64,000 bases of DNA from Lepidurus packardi (taxonomy: Eukaryota; Arthropoda; Branchiopoda; Notostraca; Triopsidae), in contig JAKZAN010000004.1 of the NCBI GenBank assembly GCA_023053545.1, forward strand, positions 4,464,001 to 4,528,000. The letters run 5' to 3'. Below the pieces are notes generated by a model that was not told where the DNA came from, ran no database searches, and worked only from the letters and a program-made list of their open reading frames with translations. A program made the position numbers and the translations under genes. Shown piece after piece: positions 326 to 53,340 of this stretch; the first letter of the stretch is position 1, and the number at the start of each line of letters is the position of its first letter.

Positions 326-2649
326 TTGGCGAACTGCACTTCACCCGCGCCTACTTTCGCGAACCATATGCTGGTCGCAGTGACTGTTTTGGATAGCACA
401 TGGTTTGAAAACAGGCAAACAGGATCGAAAATGAGTGATAAACAAAAGACGTTGGAGAACTTTTTTAAGAGACAACGGACCAAAGATAACGAAGCCCAAG
501 AGTCTAAAAAAACTAAAGTAAAAAATAGAAAATATCAGGAGTCGTACCTAAGCTTCGGATTCATTTCAACGGGCGATCCTCTTTGTCCTCACCCACTGTG
601 TGTAGTTTGTGGCGAACAACTTGCAAATGAAGCTATGCAACCTTCAAAACTGCTTCGCCACATTGAAACTAAGCACCCTGCGTTGAAAGACAAGCTTTTG
701 GAATTTTTTTGAAAGAAAAAAAAAACGAGAATATCAAGGACAAAAGCAATTCTTAAAGGCCAGCACTACGCTAAATGTATCCTCAATGAGAGCGTCCTTT
801 TTAGTAGCAAACTGTATTGCTAAGGCGAAGAAGCCCTTCACTATTGGTGAAGAATTAATTTTACCTGCTGCGAAGGACATGTGCCGTGAAATTTTAGGAG
901 AGGCTGCTGCTCAAAAGATCGCTAACGTTCCTCTTTCCGCTAGTACAGTTACTAGACGAATTGAAGAAATTGCAGGGGATGTTGAATCTCAGTTGTTAGA
1001 AAGGATTGTAATGAAGTACTAAGAGTTACCTTAGTGAAAAGAGTCCTGCGTTGTGTTTGATTGTTTTACTACAGGATGGCTACCAGTTTAGGAGAAAGTA
1101 AGAAACGCAACACAGAAATTACTATTAAAGTAATCTTTATTGATCAGAAGCAACTTGCATTTCACTGGGTTAACACGTAAGAAAGAAAGAAAGATCAGGA
1201 GTCTCAATGTATTAGAATTTAGGTTGTACTCGTAACTGTGTCTGAGTTGAGACTGATTTGTCAGCATTAAGTAATGTCCGAGAACAGTTCGGTTTTCTAC
1301 ATGTTTACAGAGAGGGGGTAGAAGGTTTAAAGAGCCTCACCTAAAAGGGGGTGAGTACGTATTACAGCTGGACAGTTATTTAGATAGATTATTCCCTCAG
1401 TTCGTGGGAAACAGACTGAGACCCGTTAGCTAGTAGTAATACGAGAGGTGGGGTAACATAAATGTCAATGGGAAGGAAACCAGGCCTACGAATTGCAAGG
1501 GAAACGTCTTGAAGATACGAGGTAACTTGCTAAGTAAATTAGGCTAGGGTTAAAAGACACATAACAGCTTTAGCTATAGAGTGGCCAGTACAACTATTGA
1601 ATCCCATCTATGAATTAGGAGTTCAGATCTTCATGACAAAGATTGATAAATCCCCTTGGTACGCAATCCAGGTTGACGAGTCCACCGATGTGGACAACAA
1701 GGCAATAATGCTTGTTTTCGTGCGTTATATTTTCGGCCAAGATGTGCATGAAGATTTACTTTGTTCACTATCATTGCCAACCAATACCACTGCTGCAGAG
1801 TTATTCAAATCTTTGAATAACTACATGTCGGGAAAACTGAACTGGTCATTTTGTGTTAGAATTTCTACGGATGGAGCAGTTGATATGACCGGAAGGATTT
1901 CTGGCTTTACTACTCGGGTCAAAGAGGTCGCCCCTGAATGCGAGTCCACGCACTGTGTCATCCATCGAGAGATGTTGGCTAGTCGTAAAATGTCGCCTGA
2001 GCTTAACACCGTTTTGCAAAATGTAGTTAAGATTATCAATTACGTCAAAGCCAATGCCCTTAATTCTCGATTGTTCGCTCAGCTCTGTGGGGAGATGGAT
2101 GCAGACTACACACGTCTACTCTTGCACACCGAAGTGAGATGACTTTTGAGAGGTAGGTCTACGACCTGAGTTTACGAGCTACGGGAGCCAATCCAGAGAT
2201 TTCTTACAGAGAAAGATTCTCAGCTGGCGGAATATTTCAATGAAAGCGAATGGGTTGCGAAACTTGCCTACCTTGCCGACATTTTCAGCCTACTTAATGA
2301 GCTCAATGTTTCACTGCAGGGTAGGACGACAACCACGTTCAAATCGGCAGATAAAGTGGCCGCATTTAAACCGAAACTTGAGTTATGGGGGGGCCGGGTT
2401 AGCATCGCGATCTTTGATATGTTCCAAACCTTAGCTGAGGTCACGAAAGATTCTGAGCCGAGTCCTTCTTTCTCTCAGTTGGTGCGAGGTCATCTGTCTC
2501 ATCTTTCGCAAGAATTTGAACGTTACTTCCCCGTGACAAAAGATCCACGATCAGGGAAAGAATGGATCCGCGACCCGTTTATTAATAGGCCAGGTGAATC
2601 GGGCTTATCACTCAAAGCAGGCTCAAGGCTCCCATTGATCATTTGTTAA
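326..2649 (+). pseudogene. Degenerate ZBED/Buster-like hAT transposase
   Basis: This is a broken transposase of the hAT superfamily, of the ZBED5/Buster-like type often found in animal genomes. An open segment beginning at the ATG at 431 ends near 712 and carries a BED-type zinc finger (CVVC, then HIETKH). A second segment (786-1022) has the N-terminal hAT region. A third (about 1646-2142) has the catalytic-core landmarks PWYAIQVDESTD and THCVIHREML, and a fourth (2356-2649) the later part. The frames are separated by a shift in an A-run near 714-726, a premature stop at about 2140 where the family has Trp, further stops near 2165, and about 640 bp of unrelated DNA at 1010-1645. No terminal inverted repeats could be delimited. 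It cannot be active. The family call is confident; the exact subfamily is not. Confidence 0.85.
1010..1645. mobile_element. Segment interrupting the transposase relic
   Basis: About 640 bp with no transposase-like translation splits the relic between the N-terminal region and the PWYAIQVDEST core. The edges carry similar short words, GATTGTAA at the left and GATTGATAA at the right. These could be a decayed target-site duplication of a nested insertion. No open frame or terminal repeat was seen inside. It could instead be diverged transposase sequence. Confidence 0.35.
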
Positions 2650-8675: not shown

Positions 8676-9704
8676 TTAGCAAGACAAAACTTCCAGTAAA
8701 GCTCCGGGACAAGGTTTTTGACACTCGGCAAGAACTTTCAAATTGCTTTTGAGAAGGGCAGAGGTTGTAGAAGGACCCAAGCTGATTATCTATGGTAGAA
8801 AATCCAAAAAGATTTAAATTTATTATAATTTCTTAAAGGATTAAATTACTTTCACTTCACTCCAGGGACATTTTAGGTGGTCAAGAACGGGTTTGGCATA
8901 TTGTACTCCTGAAGGGCTAAAGAAAACCAGAAAATCGGGCCATTGCTTAGATTCAATGGGAGAGAGAAAAAATAATCGTTAGCCATAAAAATTCAGTACT
9001 CTTTTCTCACTCCTACATCCGTAGCTTGAGCCGAGCTCATTAAGCGTTCTAAATCCGGATGTGGGGTGGTATTATATGCTTGAATTTCAACCAAACTAAT
9101 GTGACTTTGAGCCAGAATCGCAGGCAAAACATCTCGTCGCATTGAGCTGCAAGGAAAAAGATAGGGTAATCCGATATTGCTCGTTTCTAGTAAAAAAAGA
9201 CGTCCTTAGTTAGTCTGCGACACATCTATAAACAAAGTGTTTAAACAAACCTTGTTGAATTAAGTAGGCGAGATTCTCAGCATTACCACAATCTGCTCCC
9301 TCGCAAGTCAATCCGAGCAGAGTTTGGGCTGCATCAAACGTTTTGGCACCTACACAGTAAGATCTTTTCCCTTTCCAAGATTCTAGCAACGTCCCTTCTT
9401 TTGTAGCTTGGTGCAGAGCTTCTACAGACCGAGGACTAGTAAAGATGATGCCTATACAAGAACAACCAAATACTTTTGCTGTAAAATGCAAATCTTTGAA
9501 AATACCTGCAAAAGACTCAGGAGTTTGTGCCATATCTCTTAGACCGTTCAAATTTTGAAACACGAAAGAAAGCACAGGAAAAAGCTGAGTAGTATAGCCA
9601 TGATGATTGAGCAGGTGCACATACGAATCTTCCAGTTCCACAGATTCCGTATTGTGTTCAGCTTTTAAGAGCCATATGGAAGCTTTGAAGGAAGTTTCCG
9701 CCAT
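8676..9704 (-). CDS. UROS: Uroporphyrinogen-III synthase
   Basis: Fourth enzyme of haem biosynthesis, which closes hydroxymethylbilane to uroporphyrinogen III with inversion of ring D; cytosolic. Five exons (9704-9506, 9451-9251, 9186-9017, 8945-8850, 8789-8676) give 780 nt and 259 residues, close to the 265 of the human enzyme. The protein is weakly conserved, but landmarks appear in the right order: IIFTSPRSVEAL, the CVGAKTFDAA segment, GNAENLAYLIQQ, LPYLFPCSSMRRDVLP, VEIQAYNTTPHPDL, FLVFFSPSGVQYA and the final ISLGPSTTSALL. The start codon sits just after a short divergent intergenic region shared with KDM8. Exon 4 uses the acceptor CTAAG, the least certain junction, but it keeps frame and gives the expected FFSPSG block. 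Confidence 0.93.
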
Positions 9705-10716
9705 AACCTACGTTATGACATCTACTGTTACACAGTTACATATATTAGTATTAATACATCCAATAGAACGGAAATTAAAAAAGTTGAAGTGAATTTACTG
9801 ACTTAGGTTCCTATATTATCGAATATTATGATGTCAATCGTGGGAGTCGCATGGGCTTGTTTATTTACAAATTACGCTAGAAAATAATAGCAAGAGATGG
9901 CGTTTAGTTTGTTATCATTAAAGAAGGCCGGAAACGGGAATTACAGAACGTATTTGGCACGTTCTCGGGTCTGGGATGTTGCTCATCAGTTAATTGCTTA
10001 ATTAATCAATTTACTGGGCTCTGCTAGGCGAGACTATAAACTTGGCCATAACTGATTGCAAGACATTCCTCCTGTATTAACTATGCTTACAAACAACTGG
10101 GACAAATTTGTGTAACAGCCAGAAGTCGTCATACGTATTATTTGGTACGAACCCATTATATCCTTTTCCATCGACGAACTGTAAGTAAAGATTTTTATTA
10201 TGTTAGCTGGTCATTTCTGCCGCAGCGTATAACATTTTTCAACTAAAAGTTTAACGTTAGTGAAATTCATAAAGAAGGAAAATGCAGTTCGCTGTTACTT
10301 ACAAATTCAAGATTGCATTGTTTTTCTAAACCAGGGGTTCTGAAACTTTTTCGTTCGTGGCGCACACTTTGGGAAACGCTGTATCTAAACGATTAATTTT
10401 CAAACGTTGGCATAAGTTCTAGCCTACACTGCCAGCGTCGGGTAATTTACACTGCGAGAAATGTAACAAATAGGCAAATGGTTCTTGGTATTAAAAGCAA
10501 ATTAACTATATCAACAAATGTACGCTAAATAATGTATTTTAGTTTTTGCAAATTCTTCTATCAGAGATCATCGGCCTGGAGCAACTTTGGACATATTATG
10601 TTGTCTTATCCAGGAAATAATTACCTGTATTTTTTCACAAATATTCTTCAAAGTCTATAACTATAATTCAACTTGTAGTTTCAAGCGCGAGCAAAGTCCC
10701 TATTCCATTGCAAGGA
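9705..10716. promoter_or_regulatory. Divergent intergenic region UROS / KDM8
   Basis: About 1 kb separates two head-to-head start codons, so it should hold both promoters and possibly a 5' non-coding exon of KDM8. No clear TATA box was seen for either gene. A hAT-terminus-like word near 10335-10380 (see separate entry) is the only repeat noticed. Confidence 0.5.
10335..10385 (+). mobile_element. hAT-terminus-like fragment
   Basis: The words GGGGTTCTGAAACTTTTTCG and TTTGGGAAACGCTG resemble the start of non-autonomous hAT elements (CAGNGGTTCTCAAACT). The complete element at 56285 begins the same way. No matching opposite end was found nearby, so this is a solo or truncated end. Confidence 0.4.
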
Positions 10717-11979
10717 ATGAAGGAAAATCACATGTTCCTTTCACTGTTGGCCTTATTGCCCCCCGACCCTTCTTATTGGCCCATTGAAGCTCTAAAAGAC
10801 ACTGAAGGAGCCGTCATATTATACTTGAAGCAGTGCATTCGCGCAGTTTATGATCCTTTCGAAAGAACCACAAACCCGCAACAATACTTGGACTTGGCCC
10901 AAGATGTTATCGACAGGACGTGGGAAGATCTCAACACGGGTCACTGGAAGGACGTAAGCATTCATTTCAGACACGCATATTCTTACGCTTCCATTTGCAA
11001 AGCGCTATTTCTAGCCCTGGTATCTAATTCGTCCTCAAGTCTGCCAGAAAGAGCGCAAAATATCGTTTCAGCCTGCGATATTGGTTTAATTATGGGTGCA
11101 CCGGTTTTGGACCATGTGCTCACCCATATGGCGAGCCAAATTGCTCTCGGATATTTGTCTCCTACGCCAAATTCCAAACATGATGAATGTGAGGAGGAAC
11201 CGGGCCCTGTAGCCAAGAAACCCTACTTGGAACCACCACTTTCGAACAACAGCCTAGCCAAACCCATCCCGAAATTCGGCGACGTTGACCTGGCAGCTTT
11301 TGTGGCACTTATGCGAACGAGTGACTCGCCTGCCCTCATTCCTCATGCCATGGACCATTGGCCAGCGCGACAATTCAATGGTCCGAGAAAGTGGAGCGTG
11401 GCCTATTTAACGCAATTAGCAGGCGCTCGCACTGTTCCCGTCGAAATCGGCTCCAAGTACACCGACGACTCTTGGACGCAGAAACTCATGACCCTTAACG
11501 AATTTGTCAGCCAGTACATCGAGAAATCTCCTAAAATTGTAGGCTATCTCGCTCAGTACCAGTTATTCGATCAAATCCCGGAATTAAAGAACGATATTGT
11601 AATCCCGGATTATTGCTACTTGGGAGAGGGAGACGTGGAAGAAATTCAAATCAACGCGTGGTTTGGACCCGCAGGGACGATCTCGCCGGTTCATTTCGAC
11701 CCCGATCACAACATTTTATGCCAAGTCGTTGGCTCGAAGTATTTACGACTCTACGCGCAGAAAGATTCGGATGGTATGTATCCTTACGAAGGTTTGTTGG
11801 CCAACACAAGTCAAGTCGATGTGGAAAACCCCGATTTTGAACGATTTCCTTTGCTCGCGAGTACACCGTACTGGGAAGGAATCCTGGAGGAAGGTATGGC
11901 CTTGTATATCCCCCCCAAAATGTGGCATTACGTGCGTTCATTGAGTACGAGCTTCTCGGTCAGCTTTTGGTTTCGCTAA
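10717..11979 (+). CDS. KDM8: JmjC oxygenase KDM8/JMJD5
   Basis: A single-exon gene of 420 residues, matching the roughly 416 of human KDM8/JMJD5. It is a 2-oxoglutarate/Fe(II) oxygenase reported as an arginyl 3-hydroxylase and proposed as an H3K36 demethylase or tail protease. The N-terminal half is helical ([15 protein letters not shown]). The C-terminal JmjC cupin holds the iron triad His326-x-Asp328 in PVHFDPDHN and His404 in MWHYVRS. Family blocks [34 protein letters not shown] and the terminal FSVSFWF are present. The ATG at 10717 was chosen because the only upstream in-frame start-like codon is TTG. Intronless structure is unusual among its multi-exon neighbours, but the reading frame is perfect, so a recent retrocopy is possible but not needed. 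The AATAAA at 11985-11990 probably ends the transcript. Confidence 0.96.
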
Positions 11980-12426: not shown

Positions 12427-15400
12427 TCACATGATAACACAAGGCATTGCACAGCACACGGGCAGACAAATTGGCACTACGGCAGCTCCGCCTGCAGCCC
12501 CGCCTGCTCCGGCCCCGCCCTTTCCTCCACTTTGGGATTCTCCTTTCTTCCCTTTCTTCTTTTCCATTGTACGGGACTAGAAATGAAGAACACAAATAAA
12601 ATTAGTGCCGGTAATATTACATTGTGTACACAATAATTCAGTCTAAATTGATTGAATATTAGTACCTGCATCGGTTCATCCTTCTTGCTAAACATGTCTT
12701 GACCAGGCGGGTAGTAAATGGGCGGGCCCGGAGTGCTCTTTTGGGGCGTGCGTTTGTCTAGTACGGGCTCTGGCTCTTTCACGGGTTGAACCGATATGGG
12801 TGCTCCGTTCGCTGCTGGCGTTACGGATATCATAGGCTTTTTGGGTACTGGCGCTGGAGTCGAAGTGACCGTCAGAGGCTAGAAAGTAAAAATCGTTAAA
12901 AAGTGTCAGAAAGCGATGAAAAAGACAAAGAAATTTACTTGTGGGACGCCTGAGAAGGAGGCCATTAAATCGTCGAGCTTTTTGGGCGGAGCTTGCTGCT
13001 CCGGTCCGTTGCTAGGACCACGACGGGCTGGAAGCGGAGAGGCGGGGCCTCCAGCAGGGGTGTAGAGCTTGGGTTTGACCGTGAGGGGATGACTGGGAAC
13101 ATTACAGAAGGGCTCATTAGGCGGAGCGTCTTTTGTGAGACGAGGGTAGTCCGGGTGGTTTGGAAAGTTACAGATTAACTGCGGATGGGAGAAAATGGTG
13201 CATTTAGGGGGTGAATCGGGCCCCACTTCACCCGCGTAGGCGGGAAAATCCGGATGGCGATTAATGTTGCAAATCAGTGGAGGGTGGTTGGGGATCGTGC
13301 AGATCGGGGCTGAAAGTGGAGTGCTTTTGCCTAGCAAGTGCGGGTAGTTGGGATGATCTCCCAAATTGCACATGGGGGGCTGCAAATGAGAAGGTACGTT
13401 GCAATAAGGATCAGCATTCGGCGGGGCATCTTGCGCCAATTTGGGGTAATCGGGATGGGCAGGAATATTGCACAAATGCGGATGGGAATTGACGTTGCAT
13501 TTCGGAGGTGTATTTGGCGGATCGTTGCCGGCATAGAGCGGGTACTCGGGATGTTTCTTGATGTTGCAGACCACGGTAGGGTGCGTCGGCAGGGTGCAAA
13601 TGGGTGGGGCAGAAGGTGTATTCCGGGTCATCAAACTAGGGAAATCTGGATGATCCGCAATGTTACACATGGGCTGATTGTGTTTGGGGACGTTGCAACA
13701 AGGGTCTTTTACATTCGGTCCCAGTTCTTTGGCCAGCTTGGGATAGTCGGGGTGCACAGGGATGTTGCAGATGGAAGGGTGAGTCTTGACACTGCAAGTA
13801 GGAGGTGATTTATGTCCCAAATTCCCCATGAAAACAGGATACTCTGGATGTTTGGGGATATTGCAGAGTAAAGAAGGGTGCGTAGGGACCGTGCATATTG
13901 GAGGAGCCAAGGGGGTAGTTTTGGTCATTAAATTGGGGTAATCTGGATGTTCGTCCATGTTGCAAATGGGCTGATAGTGAGTTGGGACATTGCACGAAGG
14001 TTCGGCATTTGGAGGGGCATCCCGAGCCAGTTTGGGGTAATCAGGGTGCAACGGAATGTTGCATAGGTAAGGGTGAGATTTCATGTTGCAAGTGGGGGGT
14101 GATCTAGGACCAAGTTTGACGGAAAACTCGGGGAAGCCGGGATGTTTGGGGATATTGCAAAGTAAAGGTGGATGATTCAACACCGAGCAAATCGGAGGAG
14201 CCAGAGGGGTGCTCTTTGTCATAAGATTGGGGTAGTCAGGGTGATCTTGTACGTTGCAGATCGGTTGGGCTGTATCGTGACCTGGCACGTTGCAAGAAGG
14301 TTCTGAATTGGGAGGAGCATCTTGGGCCAGTTTGGGGTAGTTGGGGTGTACTGGTATGTTACAAAGGTAAGGGTGAGCTTTGATATTACAAGTAGGCGGG
14401 GCATGGGGAGACAACTTGTGTCCAAAGTCTGGAAAGTGAGGGTGTTTGGGAATATTGCAGAGCAGACTGGGATGATTGGGAACGCTGCATATCGGCGGAG
14501 CTAATGGCGTATTCTTCGACATTAAATTGGGGTAATCCGGGTGATCGTCCACGTTGCAGGCCATTTGGGCGTGTTTGGGTAAGTTGCAGTAAGGTTCTAC
14601 CCCTGGAGGCAAATCCTGAGCCAATTTGGGGTAATCCGGGTGAGCGGGAATGGTGCACACTTGCGGATGAGCCGAAATGTTGCAGACGGGAGGGGAACGA
14701 GGTCCCAGGTTCTTGGTGGCAAACTCGGGATAGTTGGCATGTTTAGGGATGTTGCAGAGCAGCGGAGGATGGTCAGAAATGGTGCAGACTGGGTTTGGCG
14801 AATTTTGACTTTTGCCTAGCAATTTAGGGTAGTTTGGATGCTCGGGGATATTGCAGGCCGGCAACGGACTATGATTGGGGATGTTGCAGACGTATCCAAC
14901 GCTGGGCGGCAAGTCCGGTACGTGGAATCTTGGGAACTCCTCGTGGGTGTCGCAGTTGCAGATTAAGCGCGGGTGGCTTTGCACATGACAGCTCAGAGTG
15001 TTATATTTCTCACCGGGTGGGCGCAGGCCATCCATGTACCCTGGATAGTTTTCGTGGGTCGAAACGTTGCAAAAAGGTTTGGGAGTTCCCCCCGAATGTA
15101 CCGACTCGTTGTTGCCGGAAGATAGGGAAGATTCCGTGCGACTGTGTAGCACAAGTCTGGAGTTGTCGGTCGAAGGGGCTCCTTCTAAATACTGGTGTCC
15201 TTCAACGGAACTACCAAAGTGCTGCTGTTGTTGTTGTTGGGTCCGGTAGCTGTATGCGAACTTGGAGCGCGTAGCGTACGAAGAGGAAGAAGAACCTGTG
15301 TTCTCCGTACCCTCCCAGCGTTGCTCGGAATCGGGTTCCGTGACAATTGGCTCTCTTTCGTGGTACATTTCTTGTTCCTTGTGGCCATATGTCTGCATTT

Positions 15401-16903
15401 GCTGCTGTTGGTTCAGTTGCTGGTGGTGTATTTGGTACTGCTTTTGCTGTTGTTCATGTTGTCGCTGTTGCTGTTGTTCGTGTTGTCGTTGTTGCTCTTC
15501 ATTTTCTCGTTTTTGCTGTTGCTGTTGTTCATGTTGGTGGTGGATTTGGTACTGCTGTTGCTGTTTTTCATTCTCTTGCTGATGTTGTTGTTGCTGTTGT
15601 TGTGTCGTCCGATAACTGTAAGCGTATTGCCTTGCATTTCCGCTTTCGCGGGTACCGTCGGTTCGCTGTTCTTCAGGAAGATTCTGAGCAACCTGGCCCG
15701 TTGTTACGATGCTTTTGGTAACGACTGCTTGGTGGGTGTGGCCGGAATTAACGTTTCGGTTGGCGGCACTAGCGATTAGGTCTTCCAGTGCTAAATCTAT
15801 TTCATTCGGAGAAGAATCCAAAGAGGTAGCCTCTGGAGGTCTAGGCGTACTTTGGTGGAGCGGTAAGGTCGGGGTATCCCTTAACCTACTCGCTTGGGTG
15901 CGTTCAGGTTTTAAAGGTGGCTCACCTGAAATTGCATTAATTGATAGTGATTTTTTTATTATTTTTTTTTATTTATTTTCGTCTATATTACTTTGGTCGG
16001 GCGATCGTACTCGGTTTTGGCGATCAGTGGTACTGACTATTGATTGTACAGGGGAATCAACGTCAGATCTTTGCCCAGAACCGGTGCTATTGTACCGGTA
16101 GGTCGTCACGGTGCGTTTTTCGAAGGATCGCCCACGCTAAAGTTTCCAATGAAACCCATTTTAATGTTCTAAACTTTTGTAATAGGTTGAAAGTTTACGT
16201 CGGAATTGGTGCGAGAGATGGTACTCAAATGCGGGGCAGGTTCTCCTAATTCAACAGGTTCAAGTACAGGATCAGGGGTCGCCATTCCAACCAGTAAAGT
16301 ACCACCTCCACTTTCCCCGTATGTGTGATACTCCCGGTACTCGCGTTGAGCGCTACGAGAGCGAGTTGTGGCTAAGGCGGACTGAAAACTAGGGCTCGTA
16401 CTTTCCTGGTAACAAAAACGCCAAAGATTATGGCAATCATTTAAGATCCTTATTTATTATTCCAAAGATTAGCACATTTCAAAGAATAAACCTGATTTTA
16501 GATCATTTTTATTTTTTAATTACCTGTACTTCGGTACGGGCATATCGCTGGGCCGAGGCGCTTCGACTTCGCTGATTACTCCCTGGAGCAAGGCCGGGGA
16601 TGGGGCTGGTCGAAGCTTGTTGGCCGTAACTCCGATTCACGTAATTCTGCTGTTCCTGGAAGAGTCTGCGGTTGACGTGGTCGCGTTGTGGTGAAATGCT
16701 GGTTTGCAAATCATCCAGCATCCGATCTATGACGGCATTTTTAAGTTTGTTAGTTGAGTTTCTCGTAAAACTTAGGTCATCTTTTCTTATTGCGAAGCAT
16801 AGAACAATGAATTACCTAAACGGTTGTCCCATTCGGTGGGACGAAACGATGTCTCCACTGCCTGTTGCTGCAACGAGTACGACTCCATGTGGTTGGATGA
16901 CAT
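12427..16903 (-). CDS. LD-motif, Cys-x4-His repeat protein with CVIM tail (unnamed)
   Basis: I do not recognise this protein. Seven exons (16903-16816, 16726-16524, 16405-16199, 16136-15992, 15925-12939, 12878-12666, 12576-12427) total 3993 nt and encode 1330 residues. Order of parts: an LD-type motif (LDRMLDDL) about 30 residues from the start; a Ser/Arg/Tyr-rich region with repeated YSYRT; a second LD-like motif (IDLALEDL); Gln/His-rich tracts; about 700 residues with 40 Cys-x4-His units, mostly CN[IV]PxHPxYP; a third LD-like motif (LDDLMASF); a Pro-rich linker with GPPIYYPPGQDMF; then a basic KKKGKKGE stretch, a Gly/Ala run and the C-terminus CCAMPCVIM. LD motifs bind FAT- and CH-type domains in adhesion and muscle scaffolds. 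CVIM is a classical farnesylation box. I infer a membrane-attached cytoskeletal or adhesion scaffold. The start is the first ATG of the first exon found; an earlier exon is possible. Confidence 0.8.
12950..15080 (-). repeat. Cys-x4-His tandem protein repeats, six A-B-C triplets
   Basis: Within the large exon, 19 complete two-unit modules (C-x4-H, 3-6 residues, C-x4-H, then a 15-25-residue spacer) are flanked by one half module at each end. From the third module on they fall into three alternating types. Type A spacers end like NLMTKxTPLAPPI, type B contain CNIPKH and end near SPPT, and type C contain HPYLCNIPVHP and end KLAQDAPPNAEP. The A-B-C order repeats six times with a period of about 98 residues (about 295 nt), so the array grew by duplication of a three-module block. 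Confidence 0.9.
15395..15605 (-). repeat. Gln-coding CAG/CAA-rich tract
   Basis: An imperfect CAG/CAA/CAT tract encodes Gln/His/Glu-rich sequence such as QQQQQQHQQ and HEQQQQRQHEQQQ in the repeat-protein gene. The mix of codons suggests an old, fairly stable tract. Its complement gives long spurious frames on the + strand. Confidence 0.85.
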
Positions 16904-23720: not shown

Positions 23721-24267
23721 TTAACCAAAAAAGAACGTGTTGAGGAAGCTAATGAAAGGGTTGTAGATAGAATTAATGGCGTAACCCACGGCTCCGTCAA
23801 CGGTGGTAGCGCCGCCAAATAGCGTTGGGAGCAGCGCGATAGGGATGAGACTGAAAATTTTTACCAAAATGGGTCCAATGATACTATTGATCAGGACATT
23901 GGAAATAGGGTACAAAATAATGGCCCAGTCAATTAGACGTAATTCCTCTAGCGTCTCCGCGGTTTCAAGTTTGTCGAGAAGCGTGCGAACGTTTCTGGCT
24001 ATTTCTGTAGCGTTGGTGGAAGGTTTTGGAAAAGCGAGAAAAGTGGTTGCAGGCGCTGGAATGAAGGGTATGTCTCTGATAAGTTCGTTGGAAAGTCCTT
24101 CCAGGTTGGCCAGTAACTTGGGGTCTGATCCTGAAAAAATAAACTGTATCAGAAACTTTTTTTCGTAAGTGAAATATTTTACCAGTAGATACATGGGCGA
24201 AAGTATTGACTTCGGCTTGTGACACTGCCAGGCCGCAAGTGAAGAGCAAAGCGACCACGAGTTTCAT
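23721..24267 (-). CDS. Secreted array protein D
   Basis: Unknown secreted protein of 164 residues. Exon 1 (24267-24183, 85 nt) encodes MKLVVALLFTCGLAVSQA and a linker; exon 2 is 24130-23721. The mature part begins GSDPKLLANLEGLSNELI and includes a NATEIARNVRTLLDKLE helix and the family signature LPTLFGGATTVDGAVGY, followed by the hydrophobic C-terminal stretch NPFISFLNTFFFG. There are no disulfide-forming cysteines in the mature chain. The long hydrophobic C-terminal half (ILINSIIGPIL-like and the signature) could associate with membranes or lipids. D and F are very similar over the whole gene and both flanks, so the duplication is recent. Function unknown. Confidence 0.82.
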
Positions 24268-25874: not shown

Positions 25875-26420
25875 TTAACCAAAAAAGAACGTGTTGAGGA
25901 AGCTAATGAAAGGGTTGTAGATAGAATTAATGGCGTAACCCACGGCTCCGTCAACGGTGGTAGCGCCGCCAAATAACGTTGGGAGCAGCGCAATAGGGAT
26001 GAGACTGAAAATTTGTACCAATATGGGTCCAATGATACTATTGATCAGGACATTGAAAATAGGGTACAAAGTAGTGGCCCAGTCAATTTGCCGTAATTCC
26101 TCTAGTGTCTCCACGTTTTCAAGTTTGGCGAGAAGCGTGCGAACGTTTCTGGCTATTTCTGTAGCGTTGGTGGAAGGTTTTGGAAAAGCGAGAAAAGTGG
26201 TTGCAGGCGCTGGAATGTAGGGCATGTTTCTAATAAGTTCTTTGAAGAGTCCTTCCAGGTTGGCCAGTAACTTGGGGCCTGATCCTGAAAAAATAAACTG
26301 AATCAGATTTTTTTTTTGTAAATGAAATATTTTACCAGTAGATACATGGGTGAAAGTATTGACTTCGGCTTGTGACACTGCCAGGCAGCAAGTGAAGAGC
26401 AAAACGACCACGAGTTTCAT
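25875..26420 (-). CDS. Secreted array protein F
   Basis: Unknown secreted protein of 164 residues, close paralogue of D. Exon 1 is 26420-26336 (85 nt, MKLVVVLLFTCCLAVSQA) and exon 2 is 26284-25875. It keeps the family signature LPTLFGGATTVDGAVGY and the C-terminus SFLNTFFFG. The short intron happens to be open in frame, so retention would add about 17 residues rather than stop translation. Differences from D are mainly substitutions in the first half (GSGPKLL, NMPYIPAP). Function unknown. Confidence 0.82.
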   Translation of the reverse strand: MKLVVVLLFTCCLAVSQAEVNTFTHVSTGKIFHLQKKNLIQFIFSGSGPKLLANLEGLFKELIRNMPYIPAPATTFLAFPKPSTNATEIARNVRTLLAKLENVETLEELRQIDWATTLYPIFNVLINSIIGPILVQIFSLIPIALLPTLFGGATTVDGAVGYAINSIYNPFISFLNTFFFG

Positions 26421-26480
26421 CTTTGGAGTCAGTGAAGTTTCTGACAATTGCACAATTGTAGTTCTGGAACCAAGGCTTTC

Positions 26481-26489
26481 CTTTTTATG
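26481..26489 (-). promoter_or_regulatory. TATA-like box of array gene F
   Basis: CATAAAAAG on the minus strand, same spacing and sequence as in gene D. Confidence 0.5.
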
Positions 26490-26499
26490 CAGAATTCGT

Positions 26500-27555
26500 G
26501 GTAATTACAAATTTCACCTAAACACGAACACGAACAGCTGTACGGCTTATATCCGGTGGTTTTGTTGGCTTGTAATTTATTATAATAACTTATTATTCTT
26601 ATATAATTTATTATTACTTGTTATTATAAATTGCAAGCAGATAAAATTGCTTGCGTTTCATTTTATATATGTAATTGTATGAACTATGTTGTCATTGTTT
26701 TTCAAAAGATTCGCTTGTTTTACCACCAGAAACGTTTCTTCGTTTCTGTTAATTTCGAATTTTCTTTTTCTGAAACAACAAACAGAATAACACGTTTCCT
26801 TCTGGCGTAAGCGGTAAAATATAAGAAAGGAGAAACGGAAGGAAAAGGAATTATACAGAATGAGACTGATATAGAACTAGATTGTTGTAACTGTTACGTC
26901 CAGGGAGGCAGTATCGCCAAGTAGTATCTGTTGTTACTAACTTTAGTGAACCCGCAACACAACCTTCGTACTATAAGGAACTTAGACTCTATTCGAGTAA
27001 CGTGAAAGGAAGACTAAACATAGAGACTTACGTTACAAACAAAGGGTACGAGGGGAAAAATGGGTGGTACAACAAAAAACTGAAACTCTAGTCATTTCCG
27101 AATTTCGGACTCAATACATCAGTATCGGCAGCAGCCCTCTTTATTTTATGTTTAATTCACTTCCGTTTTCTTGTTCCGTTTTGTTTTCCTTAATTTCAGA
27201 TCTACATTTGAAGAGAAGAACAGTAATGTATTCAATGACGCAAATTTATTGGTCTTTACTTCATGTAAGTTTTTAACTTGTTAGCCAATACAATTAGGTA
27301 CAGCATCTAATGCCTTGTGGTGTATTGCGTAACAAGCTTACACGCAACTTGTTGTCTACTCGCCATGGTCGAATCAAATTCACACATAACATGATAGAGA
27401 AACTAAGAAGCCTTAAAAGAAATAGACGAGTCGAGTTAATTTGGTAACGTGATGCATCAGTAGCTGCAGAACATAATCTATTAACTCTAAAGGCGAGTAA
27501 TGCTTGTATATTTGTAGCATTATTGTATACAGGAAACTGAAACTTAAACAAACAC
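26500..27555. other. Intergenic between array loci F and G
   Basis: AT-rich DNA with a TTATTATAA-rich stretch near 26570-26630. No gene is supported; the small open frame at 27064-27276 has no recognisable content. Confidence 0.4.
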
Positions 27556-29261: not shown

Positions 29262-29811
29262 TTAACCAAAGAGATATGTGTTGAGGACATAGATGAATGG
29301 ATTGTATACGGAATAAATTATGTAACCCACAGAGGCATCAACGGTGGTAGACCCACCAAATAGTGTTGGCAGCGCCGCAGCGGGGATGAGACTGACAATC
29401 TGGACCAATATGGGTCCGGCAATCAGGTTGATCAAGATGTTAAAAATGGGGAACAAGGTTGTAGCCCAATCGATTTGTCGCAAATCGTGCAGGGTTTCCG
29501 CGCTTTTGACTTCATTGTAAAGCGTGCGAACGTTTCTAGCTAGATCAGTGGCGTTTGTGCAAGGAACGATGGGTTTGGCGAAGTCAGGCACCGGAAACGT
29601 GTGATTGGAGATTAGTCCATTGAAAAATCCTTCCAGATCGAATGGAAACTTTTGTCTTGCTTCTTCTATACAAAGGATACAAACTGTAATTCTTAGCTGT
29701 TTTTTTTTTTTTAAAACAACGGATACCTTTAGACTCATTGTTGGTAGGGACGACTTTGGCCTGTGAAACTACCACGCAATAGGCGACGAGCAAAATGGCA
29801 AGAATATTCAT
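29262..29811 (-). CDS. Secreted array protein H
   Basis: Unknown secreted protein of 162 residues. Exon 1 (29811-29727, 85 nt) encodes the signal peptide MNILAILLVAYCVVVSQA; exon 2 is 29665-29262, again phase 1. The mature part begins EEARQKFPFDLEGFFNGLI, contains NATDLARNVRTLYNEVKSAE and the signature LPTLFGGSTTVDASVGY, and ends IYVLNTYLFG. It is an older branch of the D/F type and the parent-like relative of fragment E. Function unknown. Confidence 0.8.
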
Positions 29812-34417: not shown

Positions 34418-35205
34418 TTAATATTTGGGGGCTTCGTATTTGGGGGCTTCGTATTTAGGGTACTCATATTTAGGAGCCTCATATTTAGGAGCCTCGTATT
34501 TAGGAGCCTCGTATTTAGGAGCTTCGTATTTGGGGGCTTCATACTTCGGGTACTCGTACTTTGGAGTTTCGTATTTGGGAGCCTCGTATTTAGGTGTTTC
34601 GTACTTGGGTTGCTGTGTTTTAGAATTAAAGTTACATGTTTGAAACACAATTTGAATTATGTTAAGCTTACGTGGTAAGCGGGGGCAGAGTAAGGAGCAG
34701 GAGCGTATTCTTGGGCAGGGGCGTGGTATTCGGGGGCTTTTTCACCGTGGTTGTATTCCCAATATTGCTCGCCCTGGTTGCCGTAATCGTCTCCCCACTT
34801 CACCTAATTCATTATTTAGAAAATAGTTAGTTCCAAGGTTTGAGAATGGAGATGTACAGTTACCTTGGTGCGGAAACGCGAGTCTTTTGCTTGCTCGAAC
34901 CGGGAAGTAAAGTGACTGGGGTTGCCGCGGTTGTAGCCAAACTCGTACTCGTGTTCGGCGGGTACATTGGCGTACTGGAAGTAACCTTCTGGTTTCTTGC
35001 CATCGTAAGAAGGTCCGCTGTAAGCTACAGGTTTCTTGGCATCGTACGAAGGTTTGTTATAGCTTTCATCGGCCAATACGGCTACGCTGGCCATCGCTAA
35101 AAGAACCTGAAATTTGTACAAAGTTGAGATTTGTTTGCAGGTTCAAGACTAAAACGAAAATTTTTAATATTTTGGTAAAAATTTTCTTTTTACCAGAATC
35201 TTCAT
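34418..35205 (-). CDS. Cuticle-like secreted protein 2 with PKYE repeat tail
   Basis: Secreted structural protein of 193 residues with the same four-exon plan as its neighbour: 35205-35194 (four codons), 35106-34864, 34803-34672 and 34612-34418. The core blocks HEYEFGYNRGNPSHF, FEQAKDSRFRTK and VKWGDDYGNQGEQYWEYNHG match protein 1. The N-terminus has an extra Tyr/Pro repeat (KPSYDAKKP, GPSYDGKKP). The last exon is almost wholly a 15-nt repeat coding for PKYE followed by A, T or Y, about 13 times, ending PKY. Tyr-rich tails of this kind are candidates for cross-linking or hydrogel behaviour. Protein 1 has only two such units, so the tail expanded after duplication. Confidence 0.85.
34420..34612 (-). 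repeat. 15-nt minisatellite coding PKYEA
   Basis: About 13 imperfect 15-nt units in the final exon of cuticle-like gene 2. The antisense strand is also open and reads YLGAS repeats, a shadow of the repeat. Confidence 0.95.
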
Positions 35206-39880: not shown

Positions 39881-42800
39881 ATGGCCCAGGTAAGCGAGTT
39901 TCACTCCTTTGGTGGATTAGTTGGAGTTGTTTGAGTCATTGTGGATTACAAGAGTAAGAAAGTAACTTTCAGTACGGTGGAATGCTTTAACCAATGAAAT
40001 TATTGTTTTTTTTCTGCAAATGTGACATAGAAAGATAGTTGGAATAGGTCTCGCACAGGTGCATGACTGGACGGTTCCTTATTTTGACTCCTGGTTCCTT
40101 TCGTACTGGCCGTGGGCGAAGCACGACTTGCCATCAACGAACGCTTTTATGTTGCTTTTGGACTTCTATTTTAGTGGCTTTTTTAATTTGCTGGGCCTGG
40201 TTGGCAGGAAAGCAACGCTGAAAAAAGCTACCCAATATGGTGTGTTCATTGACAGTTCCGGGTGCGGTTGTTTGAAAAAGCCGCACAGTTACCGTCTTTT
40301 TCGGGTTGTTAGGGCTTTTTTGATTATATAAGACTGCGAATAAAAGGAGGAACGGGGAACAAAACATTGTTTGGGGTTAACAACTCATTGTGTTTTTTTT
40401 TCTTGTTTGGTTACAGTGCGCCGACTATGGATCATGGCTGCTCCAGGAACGGTTTAGTCCATTAAAAGCAGAAACCATGGCAACGGAGGACAGTCATCCG
40501 CCCCTGCTTCACAAGTATTCGCAATTGGCCCACATTAACGTGACACGGTGCCCGGATGCCACCGCCCTGCTTCTGTCCTCGCCCTTGCCGCCTGAGTTGG
40601 TCGTGGCGCTCAAATCGTGTTCCTCCTCCTCTTTAACACCAGCGACCAGCTCGGCCTCTTCCGCGGCAGCTTTATTGCGGTCTTCGAGTTCGGAAACGGA
40701 TGTGCAGCTACAACAGCATCCCGCCAGTTCTCACAAGACAGTATTTCATGCTGAGAGCGCGGGTATTTCGGGCCACCAGGTGGTCAAAGTCCCCTTGACG
40801 CGCACTTGCAGCGAAGGACTGCACGTGACGTACCGTTCCAGTAGCAACAGCAAGCCGAGAAGGAAGTTGGAATCAGAGGACTCGAGCTACGACTCGGATT
40901 ATGAATGCTCGACCGAATCTCAGTCCAAGTTGGCTCTGGGGGCACTCACGACCAGCATGGGAAACATTACCCCGACTTCAGCAACACCTAGCGAGCACGA
41001 CGACGTTTCCAGGACTGTTTCGGATACCTTGGGCCAAGAGTTTAGCGAGTACGTGTCTTTAAACCAGCTGCAGAGCCAAATACCTGTTTTGGACTTGAGC
41101 GAGGAGCCGAATAAAGAAGACAGTGACGAGGACGATGTAGAAGAATACGAGGAGGAAGAGGGTGAATCATTAGCCGGTCCCGATCCTTCCTATACGAGTA
41201 AAGTGGAATTTGCCTTGAAATTAGGCTATACGGAACAACAAGTGCGCACAGTTCTAAATAAGATCGGCTCCCAACCCAGTCAGAATGAATTATTGGCAGA
41301 ACTCATTAGAATTGCATCGCTGGCCCCTGCTGCGCATGGGCCAACTTCCCCAGCGACGCTTAACGAGCAGCGTTTGCTAGTCGCCGAAGAAGGGGATAAC
41401 AAACCGACCCGAGAAGGTGGTACTTTACGACATATTGTCATTGATGGATCCAACGTCGCTATGAGGTACTTAAAGAACTTGACTCTCATCTAAAGTTCAC
41501 TTGAGGGCTAACTTCTACTTGGTCTGTACTTATTTGTCCAGTCATGGAAACAAGGAGCGTTTTTCTTGCCGTGGGATTCAAATTTGCGTCGATTGGTTCC
41601 GCGCGAGAGGACATAAGGACATTACCGTCTTTGTACCCAAGTGGCGAAAGGAAGCCTCGAGACCCGAAGCCCCTATCAGTGGTAAGTTTTATGTGCTCAC
41701 GGACTGAAGACGCTGCTTGTCTCTTTCATCCTTGGGAATCCTGAGAACTAAAAAGATGTTATATTCTTGTTTTTAAGCTTTGCTTATTTCTTCCAAAACA
41801 CAGATCAGGAAGTCCTGTTGGAGCTCGAGAAATGTGGGATTTTGGTGTTTACACCTTCGAGACTTGTAGGCGGAAGGCGGCTAGTTTGTTATGATGATCG
41901 TTACATTCTACGCTTGGCGCTGGACGTGGATGGCGTTGTAGTATCCAATGACAATTACCGTGATTTGTCGGCCGAGAACCCGGACTTTCGTCGCTTGGTC
42001 CAAGACCGTATTCTCATGTATTCATTTGTCAATGACCGTTTTATGCCGCCAGAGGATCCGCTAGGACGAAATGGACCGTCTTTGGACCAGTTTTTGAATA
42101 AAAAGAGCAGTTTGATCAGCTGCTGTAACCCACACCATCCTCCCTGTCCATATGGGAAGAAATGTACGTACGGCAACAAGTGCAAATATTTCCATCCCGA
42201 ACGAGGCAGCCAGCCACAGAAATCAGTGACGGAACGCTTGGCCGAACAGTCGCAAAAACACATGCAGGAACTCAAGCTGCGATCCAATGCGCATGCTCGA
42301 GTCGTCGATGATCATAAGAAATCGTTGAGTGTGCCGTTAACCCAGCAGGAACCTAGCGGAAGCAGAAGCAAAACCCCCTTAACGCGGACGCGTTCCGTAG
42401 CGGCTCAGCAAGCTCCACCTCCGCCCATTTATGCTGATTTGGCCCCGCCCATGGCGAAGTCGAAAAGCGTGGAAAATATGGCTATGGCGGCAAGACTGTC
42501 GCCTCTGAAATCGCTTCCTAATCATACAAATCAGCAGCCTTTGCTTTCCATGTGGCTAGAGAGCGGCAGTTGCCATGGAAATCATAATGTAGCCATTAGC
42601 AGTGAACATGGACACTCAACAGTCAACCCACGGCTATCGGACCCTCCACAACAAGAACCTAATGCGCACCGCAAGGTTCAACGGCAGTTAACTTTAAATC
42701 CCAGCTACGACCCGCGGTTGTACCGGTACCACCACCCGCTTCATTACTGTAATGACTATTCAGCAGTAGCACCGCCTCCATACCCGCCCCCAGCTTCCAT

Positions 42801-43323
42801 TCCGCCACCGCTCTCTCACCCGAACCGCTTTGAGCATGCGCACGTCACCCGGAATGCTTCAGCTCCGGATGCTTTCTGGTCCGCGGATCGTAGCAGTGGC
42901 AATCAACCAACGGGAGTGGCTTATTTACCCAGGTTTGTGCCTGCGGTTCCGCCGATTCAACGTCTGAACAGTACTTCAGATACGCAGTTGAATCGGTACT
43001 GTGGCGGCTCCAGCTCGGGATCCACTTCCAGTATGGCTAGTGATGTCTTCCAAGCGGATTGGAACACAGCTGTCCCTTGGCAACAACAGCATCAACAACA
43101 GCAACAAGCTTGCCGAACTTCGAGTGTTCCCTTAGGACCGCCGCCGTCTTATATCGATTCTCGAGCGAAACTGTACTACCATTTAGCCGCCATTTTCCCC
43201 CCTGAAGAAGTTCGTCAAGCTTTGCTCATGTTCCCCGATGAATGCAATCCGCAAAAGATTTGCGCCGCTATCTTGAATCTTTTCCCGCCCAAAACTGTCT
43301 TAACAGAATTTAAGGATAAATAA
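39881..43323 (+). CDS. ZC3H12: Regnase-type endoribonuclease (ZC3H12 family)
   Basis: Cytoplasmic endoribonuclease that destroys specific mRNAs through stem-loops; in vertebrates it limits inflammatory transcripts. Exons 39881-39889, 40417-41465, 41542-41681 and 41804-43323 give 2718 nt and 905 residues. The three-codon first exon (MAQ) is tentative; the ATG at 40477 (MATEDSH) is the alternative start. Order: Ser-rich region, acidic stretch, ubiquitin-associated-like helices ([20 protein letters not shown]), the PIN/NYN nuclease with its Asp residues in [23 protein letters not shown] and SNDNYRDL, a CCCH finger [17 protein letters not shown] (C-x5-C-x5-C-x3-H), a Pro/Gln-rich region and the family's C-terminal helical domain ([16 protein letters not shown]). 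Which vertebrate paralogue it matches cannot be decided. Confidence 0.94.

Positions 43324-47162: not shown

Positions 47163-53340
<6,178 letters not shown>

What the first reader, a model, noticed from the sequence alone, without database searches (positions are those of the whole stretch)
12427..16903. An unnamed 1330-residue scaffold combining LD motifs, 40 Cys-x4-His units and a CVIM tail
I know no described family with this combination. The gene model is consistent (all seven exons keep frame and sum to a multiple of three). LD motifs point to FAT- or parvin-type partners, the tail to a membrane, and the repeats to an unknown binding activity. This is the best candidate in the window for an undescribed protein system.
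Basis: partly seen in the sequence, partly recalled or inferred. Interest (0 to 1): 0.85.

Follow-up and report, generated by a model that had tools for sequence, protein, structure and literature searches.

The report
Paxillin-like lipid-tailed protein with Cys-His repeats
An arthropod gene appears to encode a large relative of the cell-adhesion adaptor paxillin that has no LIM zinc domains and instead carries forty regularly spaced cysteine-histidine pairs and a predicted lipid anchor, an arrangement I could not match to any described protein.

Summary
Minus-strand exons at 16903-12427 splice into a 1330-aa frame with 40 Cys-x4-His units (500 shuffles: mean 2.4, maximum 7) and a CVIM end. 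The units form 20 long-short pairs of about 33 aa in an A-B-C order, with pN/pS 0.22-0.43 between copies. Introns are AT-rich (GC 0.17-0.33; exons 0.52-0.56). No second copy was found in the 108.6-Mb genome. Repeats match no Pfam or PDB entry beyond chance.

New: the LD part points to paxillin. The first motif matches LD1 of this genome's own paxillin (z 6.7; 0 of 500 shuffles), and an intron splits both 4 nt into the motif, phase 1. The last motif is most like LD4 and its exon ends one codon off, same phase; that likeness alone is weak. The Pfam Paxillin model does not match, and no LIM domain was found. I read it as a LIM-less, paxillin-derived LD adaptor with a probable metal-binding array and a predicted farnesyl anchor. 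Partners, metal, lipid and transcript are untested.

The parts
12427..16903 (-). Whole coding region, seven exons, 1330 aa
   Evidence: frame kept across six introns, 3993 nt; codon usage favours this frame in exons 1-6, not in exon 7; intron GC 0.17-0.33 against exon GC 0.52-0.56
16707..16819 (-). First LD motif (aa 29-36, LDRMLDDL), split by intron 1 after the first base of the Asp codon
   Evidence: strict LD pattern; best match is LD1 of own paxillin; same intron offset (+4 nt) and phase 1
15777..15800 (-). Middle LD-like motif (aa 257-264, IDLALEDL)
   Evidence: relaxed pattern only; highest score with paxillin LD2 (28, z 2.2, 17 of 500 shuffles), LD5 close behind (25, z 2.5)
15190..15630 (-). 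Gln/His-rich low-complexity stretch with an AYSYRT copy at each end (approximate limits)
13077..15071 (-). Array of 40 C-x4-H units as 20 long-short pairs in an A-B-C order of about 99 aa
12954..12977 (-). Last LD motif (aa 1198-1205, LDDLMASF), paxillin LD4-like, near the end of exon 5
   Evidence: exon ends 39 nt from motif start against 36 nt in paxillin, both phase 0; similarity beyond the core is weak
12541..12567 (-). Basic cluster MEKKKGKKG before the tail
   Evidence: read from the translation
12430..12441 (-). C-terminal CVIM (CaaX box), with Cys 1318, 1322 and 1323 just before it
   Evidence: farnesylation is inferred from the motif, not tested

Best explanation
This is an arthropod gene for a membrane-anchored adhesion adaptor that descends, at least in its LD part, from paxillin. 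Shown by sequence here: an open seven-exon gene model, the repeat array, the LD motifs, and the LD1 sequence and intron position shared with paxillin. Inferred: its LD motifs bind the same helical partners as paxillin (FAT of FAK, GIT, parvin, vinculin or talin rod domains). Inferred: the Cys-His pairs bind metal, most likely zinc, with two pairs per ion, giving up to 20 small modules that replace the four LIM domains of paxillin as spacer and docking surface. Inferred: CVIM is farnesylated, with neighbouring Cys and Lys giving a second membrane signal, so the protein holds LD partners at the membrane without LIM-dependent targeting.
For: Candidate LD1 and paxillin LD1 of the same genome align LDRMLDDLQTSISP / LDALLADLRTTLSP, z 6.7, 0 of 500 shuffles; of five paxillin LD motifs LD1 is its best match, and LD4 is the best match of the last motif (z 3.4, 4 of 500). 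With the candidate's core letters fixed, P of such an LD1 score is 0.00095 in 20000 draws. Both genes split LD1 4 nt into the motif, phase 1; uniform placement of 6 introns gives this with P 0.0016. Copies of the repeat are strongly diverged at synonymous sites (pS 0.65-0.85) and much less at others (pN 0.14-0.31). FAT and GIT1_C domains are encoded in the genome. A 19-row model of one pair plus the next unit reaches mean pLDDT 73 with no helix of four or more residues and no strand of three or more, as a small metal-held module might.
Against: The Pfam Paxillin model finds own paxillin (2.4e-10) but not this protein at E up to 10. LD4 similarity beyond the core is not significant (P 0.08) and its exon end is one codon off. 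The chance that some candidate LD motif shares some paxillin LD-junction offset exactly is 0.023. Splice points in both genes were placed by eye, and the acceptor of intron 1 lacks a pyrimidine tract. The other intron phases differ (1,0,0,1,0,0 here; 1,0,1,2,0,0,0 in paxillin). The LD pattern alone is common: it retrieves over 6000 human sequences (PMC7703752). The A-B-C triplet model is poor (pLDDT 42.5), and the five models of the 43-aa piece range from 54 to 73. No metal, lipid or binding data exist.
Confidence: 0.5

Rival explanations
1. The LD motifs arose independently, as many non-paxillin LD motifs did, for example from nuclear export signals. The protein is an unrelated cytoskeletal scaffold that uses LD docking by convergence, and the shared intron is a coincidence.
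For: LD motifs appear and disappear often among species (PMC7703752 section 3.6). Pfam Paxillin does not match. Of LD1 and LD4, the two tested, only LD1 is similar beyond the core. Any exact junction match has P 0.023.
Against: LD1 sequence, its exact intron and the collinear highest scores LD1-LD2-LD4 (the LD2 one weak) point the same way.
Confidence: 0.35
2. The Cys-His array is a metal store or sensor (metallothionein-like, or a redox switch) and not a structural scaffold; the LD motifs and tail only place it near the membrane.
For: 40 Cys-His pairs in about 660 aa, little predicted regular structure.
Against: Strict spacing (long unit 23 aa in 15 of 20), conserved Pro and Tyr/Phe near the ligands and a class-specific A-B-C order suggest defined modules and not a loose chelator.
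Confidence: 0.15
3. The gene model is a composite: exon 7 with the CVIM tail, or exons 1-4, belong to other transcripts, or intron 6 is often retained.
For: Codon usage does not support exon 7; an antisense frame scores better there. Intron 6 has a weak GTACTA donor, and the retained-intron frame is open, with a hydrophobic stretch (ORF 12477-12878).
Against: Intron 6 GC 0.27 against 0.56 in both neighbours and a good branch and acceptor region. The exon 1-2 junction rebuilds an LD motif as in paxillin.
Confidence: 0.12

Closest known systems
Paxillin family (paxillin, Hic-5, leupaxin; Pfam PF03535 plus four LIM domains)
   Same: LD motifs whose best scores run in the order LD1, LD2, LD4 (LD2 weak); LD1 sequence and intron position
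   Different: No LIM domain and no PF03535 match found, no LD5 seen in the LD scan; has the 40-unit Cys-His array, a Gln-rich stretch and a CVIM tail
Non-paxillin LD proteins (DLC1, RoXaN, LPP, EPB41L5 and others in PMC7703752, parts read)
   Same: LD motifs outside the paxillin architecture
   Different: In the passages I read none is described with Cys-x4-His repeats or a CaaX tail; figures and supplement were not seen
Zinc modules with Cys/His ligands (LIM, CCHC knuckles, C2H2 fingers; spacings recalled)
   Same: Regular Cys and His pairs, repeated as modules
   Different: The usual spacing C-x4-H-x17-C-x4-H-x3-6 fits none of them as I recall them; no Pfam, PDB-profile or Foldseek match beyond chance
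Farnesylated and palmitoylated adaptors such as paralemmin (recalled, from no call)
   Same: Cys-rich end closing in a CaaX box with Met
   Different: No other likeness known; not compared here

Membership tests
Paxillin family | LD motifs of consensus LDxLLxxL | tested here: met
   One strict match; three to a relaxed, post-hoc pattern; LD1 and LD4 best match their paxillin counterparts
Paxillin family | Four C-terminal LIM domains | tested here: not met
   Pfam scans of the exon 5 frame (E up to 1) and of aa 1-322 and the C-terminal 169 aa (E up to 10) gave no LIM hit
Paxillin family | Match to Pfam PF03535 | tested here: not met
   No hit at E up to 10 in the N- and C-terminal parts, while own paxillin scores 2.4e-10; none in exon 5 at E up to 1
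Paxillin family | Shared gene structure at LD1 | tested here: met
   Intron at +4 nt, phase 1, in both genes; splice sites placed by eye
Paxillin family | Shared gene structure at the end of LD4 | tested here: inconclusive
   Phase 0 in both, +39 against +36 nt
LD-motif proteins (broad sense) | LD motif binds an LD-binding domain | not testable with these tools
   Needs peptide binding assays; the published LDMF predictor was not run
Known zinc-binding repeat families | Profile or fold match to a curated zinc module | tested here: not met
Known zinc-binding repeat families | Binds zinc | not testable with these tools
   No metal data
Farnesylated CaaX proteins | C-terminal Cys-aliphatic-aliphatic-Met | tested here: met
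   CVIM then stop, given that exon 7 belongs to the gene; lipidation itself not tested

The most novel reading that the evidence does not exclude
A second branch of the paxillin family exists in arthropods, in which the LIM domains were lost and replaced by an undescribed zinc module, C-x4-H-x17-C-x4-H, in 20 copies, and integrin-complex targeting was replaced by a lipid anchor.
Probability: 0.35. Interest if true: 0.8.

Novelty: new variant of a known kind. Interest (0 to 1): 0.6.

Why it matters
Two surveys give one paxillin gene for the invertebrates they name (PMC3305314 and PMC5091871, passages). The first looked for LIM proteins, so a LIM-less relative would have been missed by design; such blind spots may be general. 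A LIM-less, lipid-tailed relative would separate LD docking from LIM targeting in nature. The repeat itself would be a new Cys-His module with no curated family.

Tried and rejected
Relatives of the repeats in prokaryote genomes (10 pattern hits, none confirmed) and viral contigs (no pattern hit). Literature search by repeat strings and by CX4H with zinc and tandem repeats: 0 papers each. PDB search with the two LD peptides: one chance hit at E 0.88 and none. The only two PDB profile hits of the repeats, Gemin5 at E 2.6 and 2.7, are chance. Foldseek on the 43-aa model gave no match. The first repeat alignment (A1) was shifted by overlapping rows and was dropped; A2 and A3 replaced it. The triplet fold was too poor to use. 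I considered an LD2 homologue in the middle motif, but the support is weak. Intron phases are 1,0,0,1,0,0 here and 1,0,1,2,0,0,0 over the seven paxillin exons read, so beyond LD1, the next intron's phase and the LD4 exon end there is no clear agreement.

The species was not identified. (TTAGG)n at the very end of contig C3 (also at inner sites, 79 exact matches in all) and cuticle-type YEAPK repeats (label recalled) fit an arthropod; a water flea is a guess from genome size and intron length.

Full report
What is there. Seven minus-strand exons keep one frame over 3993 nt and give 1330 aa. An in-frame stop lies 48 nt before the ATG. By codon usage (table from 2012 codons of six other open frames of the window) the proposed frame is the best of six in each of exons 1-6; in exon 7 it is not, and an antisense frame scores higher. 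The six introns have GC 0.17-0.33 and the exons 0.52-0.56, exon 7 included. Two weak points are the acceptor of intron 1, which has no pyrimidine tract, and the GTACTA donor of intron 6. I take the model as sound, with exon 7 the least certain piece.

The repeats. There are 40 C-x4-H units; shuffles of the protein give a mean of 2.35 and a maximum of 7 in 500. They alternate between a long unit (22-27 aa from Cys to Cys, 23 in 15 of 20) and a short one (9-12 aa in the 19 that are followed by another unit), so the basic module is a pair of about 33 aa. Pairs follow an A-B-C order of about 99 aa, seen also as a 300-base tandem period. In the alignment of 19 copies the invariant columns are three Cys, three His and two Pro; the copies were cut at the pattern, so the invariance of Cys and His is partly by construction. 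An independent count: of the Cys in the array only two (539 and 957) lie outside the units. Per site, copies differ less at nonsynonymous than at synonymous positions: pN/pS 0.30 for the 10-aa long core and 0.37 for the 6-aa short core (all 20 each), and 0.22, 0.22 and 0.43 for whole long units of classes A, B and C (proportions without correction; the class figures use pairs 5-19 only, n = 4, 5 and 5, one 24-aa unit dropped). This is what selection on the protein would leave. It does not say which metal, if any, is bound.

No known family. Pfam gave one chance match for the exon 5 frame (E 0.62), none for aa 1-322 and the C-terminal 169 aa, and for the 19 single repeats two families, each in one member, best E 0.12. 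PDB profile search gave two chance hits, and Foldseek none. The prokaryote and viral collections gave no confirmed relative. No second copy was found in the genome: all 4 matches, all 2 (C-terminal part), all 8 (a triplet) and all 5 (N-terminal part) lie in this locus; the tool scores only its best candidates. No animal protein database could be searched, so orthologues in other arthropods remain unknown.

The link to paxillin. The genome has a paxillin gene on contig C5. I read its exons by eye: MDDL is on a separate first exon, chosen from three pattern candidates, and the LD region follows, with LD1 to LD5 and the first LIM residues. That exon 2 opens in phase 1 follows from its own frame and acceptor and not from the choice of exon 1. 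The first LD motif of the window protein is most like paxillin LD1 (score 43, z 6.7, 0 of 500 shuffles; LD5 is next with 34, 3 of 500). The last is most like LD4 (score 31, z 3.4, 4 of 500; LD5 27, 11 of 500). The middle one scores highest with LD2, weakly (28, 17 of 500; LD5 25, 15 of 500). With the core letters held fixed, LD1 still stands out (P 0.00095, 20000 draws) and LD4 does not (P 0.080). Both genes have an intron 4 nt into LD1, phase 1. The LD4 exon ends 36 nt after the motif start in paxillin and 39 nt in the window gene, both phase 0. With six introns placed uniformly, P is 0.0016 for the first and 0.0044 for the second within one codon; both came up in 1 of 200000 draws. The wider question, any exact shared junction at any LD motif, has P 0.023. 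Uniform placement is a simple null. Against this, PF03535 does not match, no LIM domain was found, and the other introns differ. My reading is common descent of the LD part, at about 60-65%.

How it may work. LD motifs are short helices in disordered regions that dock on FAT, parvin, GIT, vinculin and talin (PMC7703752, sections 1 and 3.1-3.3 read; section 3.6). The same paper says that the LD pattern alone is too common to be proof. FAT and GIT1_C domains are encoded in this genome. In paxillin the LIM domains, themselves zinc modules, take the protein to integrin complexes (PMC5091871 and PMC3305314, passages). Here a Cys-His array sits between the LD2-like and LD4-like motifs, and a CVIM end with three nearby Cys and a basic cluster offers another route to a membrane. 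The step from these parts to a membrane-held LD adaptor is inference. A model of one repeat pair plus the next unit, built on 19 rows, has mean pLDDT 73 (the five models range from 54 to 73), about 81 over its first 20 residues, with no helix of four or more residues and no strand of three or more; a triplet on 6 rows failed (pLDDT 42.5).

Verdict. It is best filed as a new variant near the paxillin family, not as a member: two defining features, LIM domains and the family profile, were tested and not met.

Noticed in passing
window 12577-12665: If intron 6 is retained the frame stays open into a hydrophobic stretch (VHNVILPALILFVFFISS), so a second C-terminus without CVIM is possible.
   Followed up: partly
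window 10621-11979, + strand: KDM8-type JmjC gene with ARM_KDM8_N and Cupin_8 hits, convergent with the finding.
   Followed up: partly
window 9213-9707, - strand: Exon with a uroporphyrinogen-III synthase (HEM4) hit.
   Followed up: no
window 23721-24263, 25875-26504, 29262-29768, - strand: Three related open frames ending in a shared hydrophobic segment, a local duplicated family; the two that were scanned had no Pfam hit at E up to 0.001.
   Followed up: partly
window 34421-34594, - strand: 15-base repeats coding YEAPK-type units, cuticle-type by recall.
   Followed up: no
window 40381-43323, + strand: Regnase/Zc3h12-type ribonuclease gene (only the frame 41752-43320 was scanned).
   Followed up: no
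window 49435-53340, + strand: Protein kinase gene with a long Pro-rich N-terminal part; LATS/Warts type by recall, Pkinase (two of its frames scanned).
   Followed up: no
window 47533-47577: Uninterrupted run of 45 C, possibly an assembly weak point.
   Followed up: no
window 1543-2649, + strand: Two adjacent open frames that look like a hAT-type transposase by recall; Pfam gave nothing at E up to 0.001.
   Followed up: no
G000 contig C3 end, 12866170-12866234: (TTAGG)n at the contig end, an arthropod-type telomere.
   Followed up: partly
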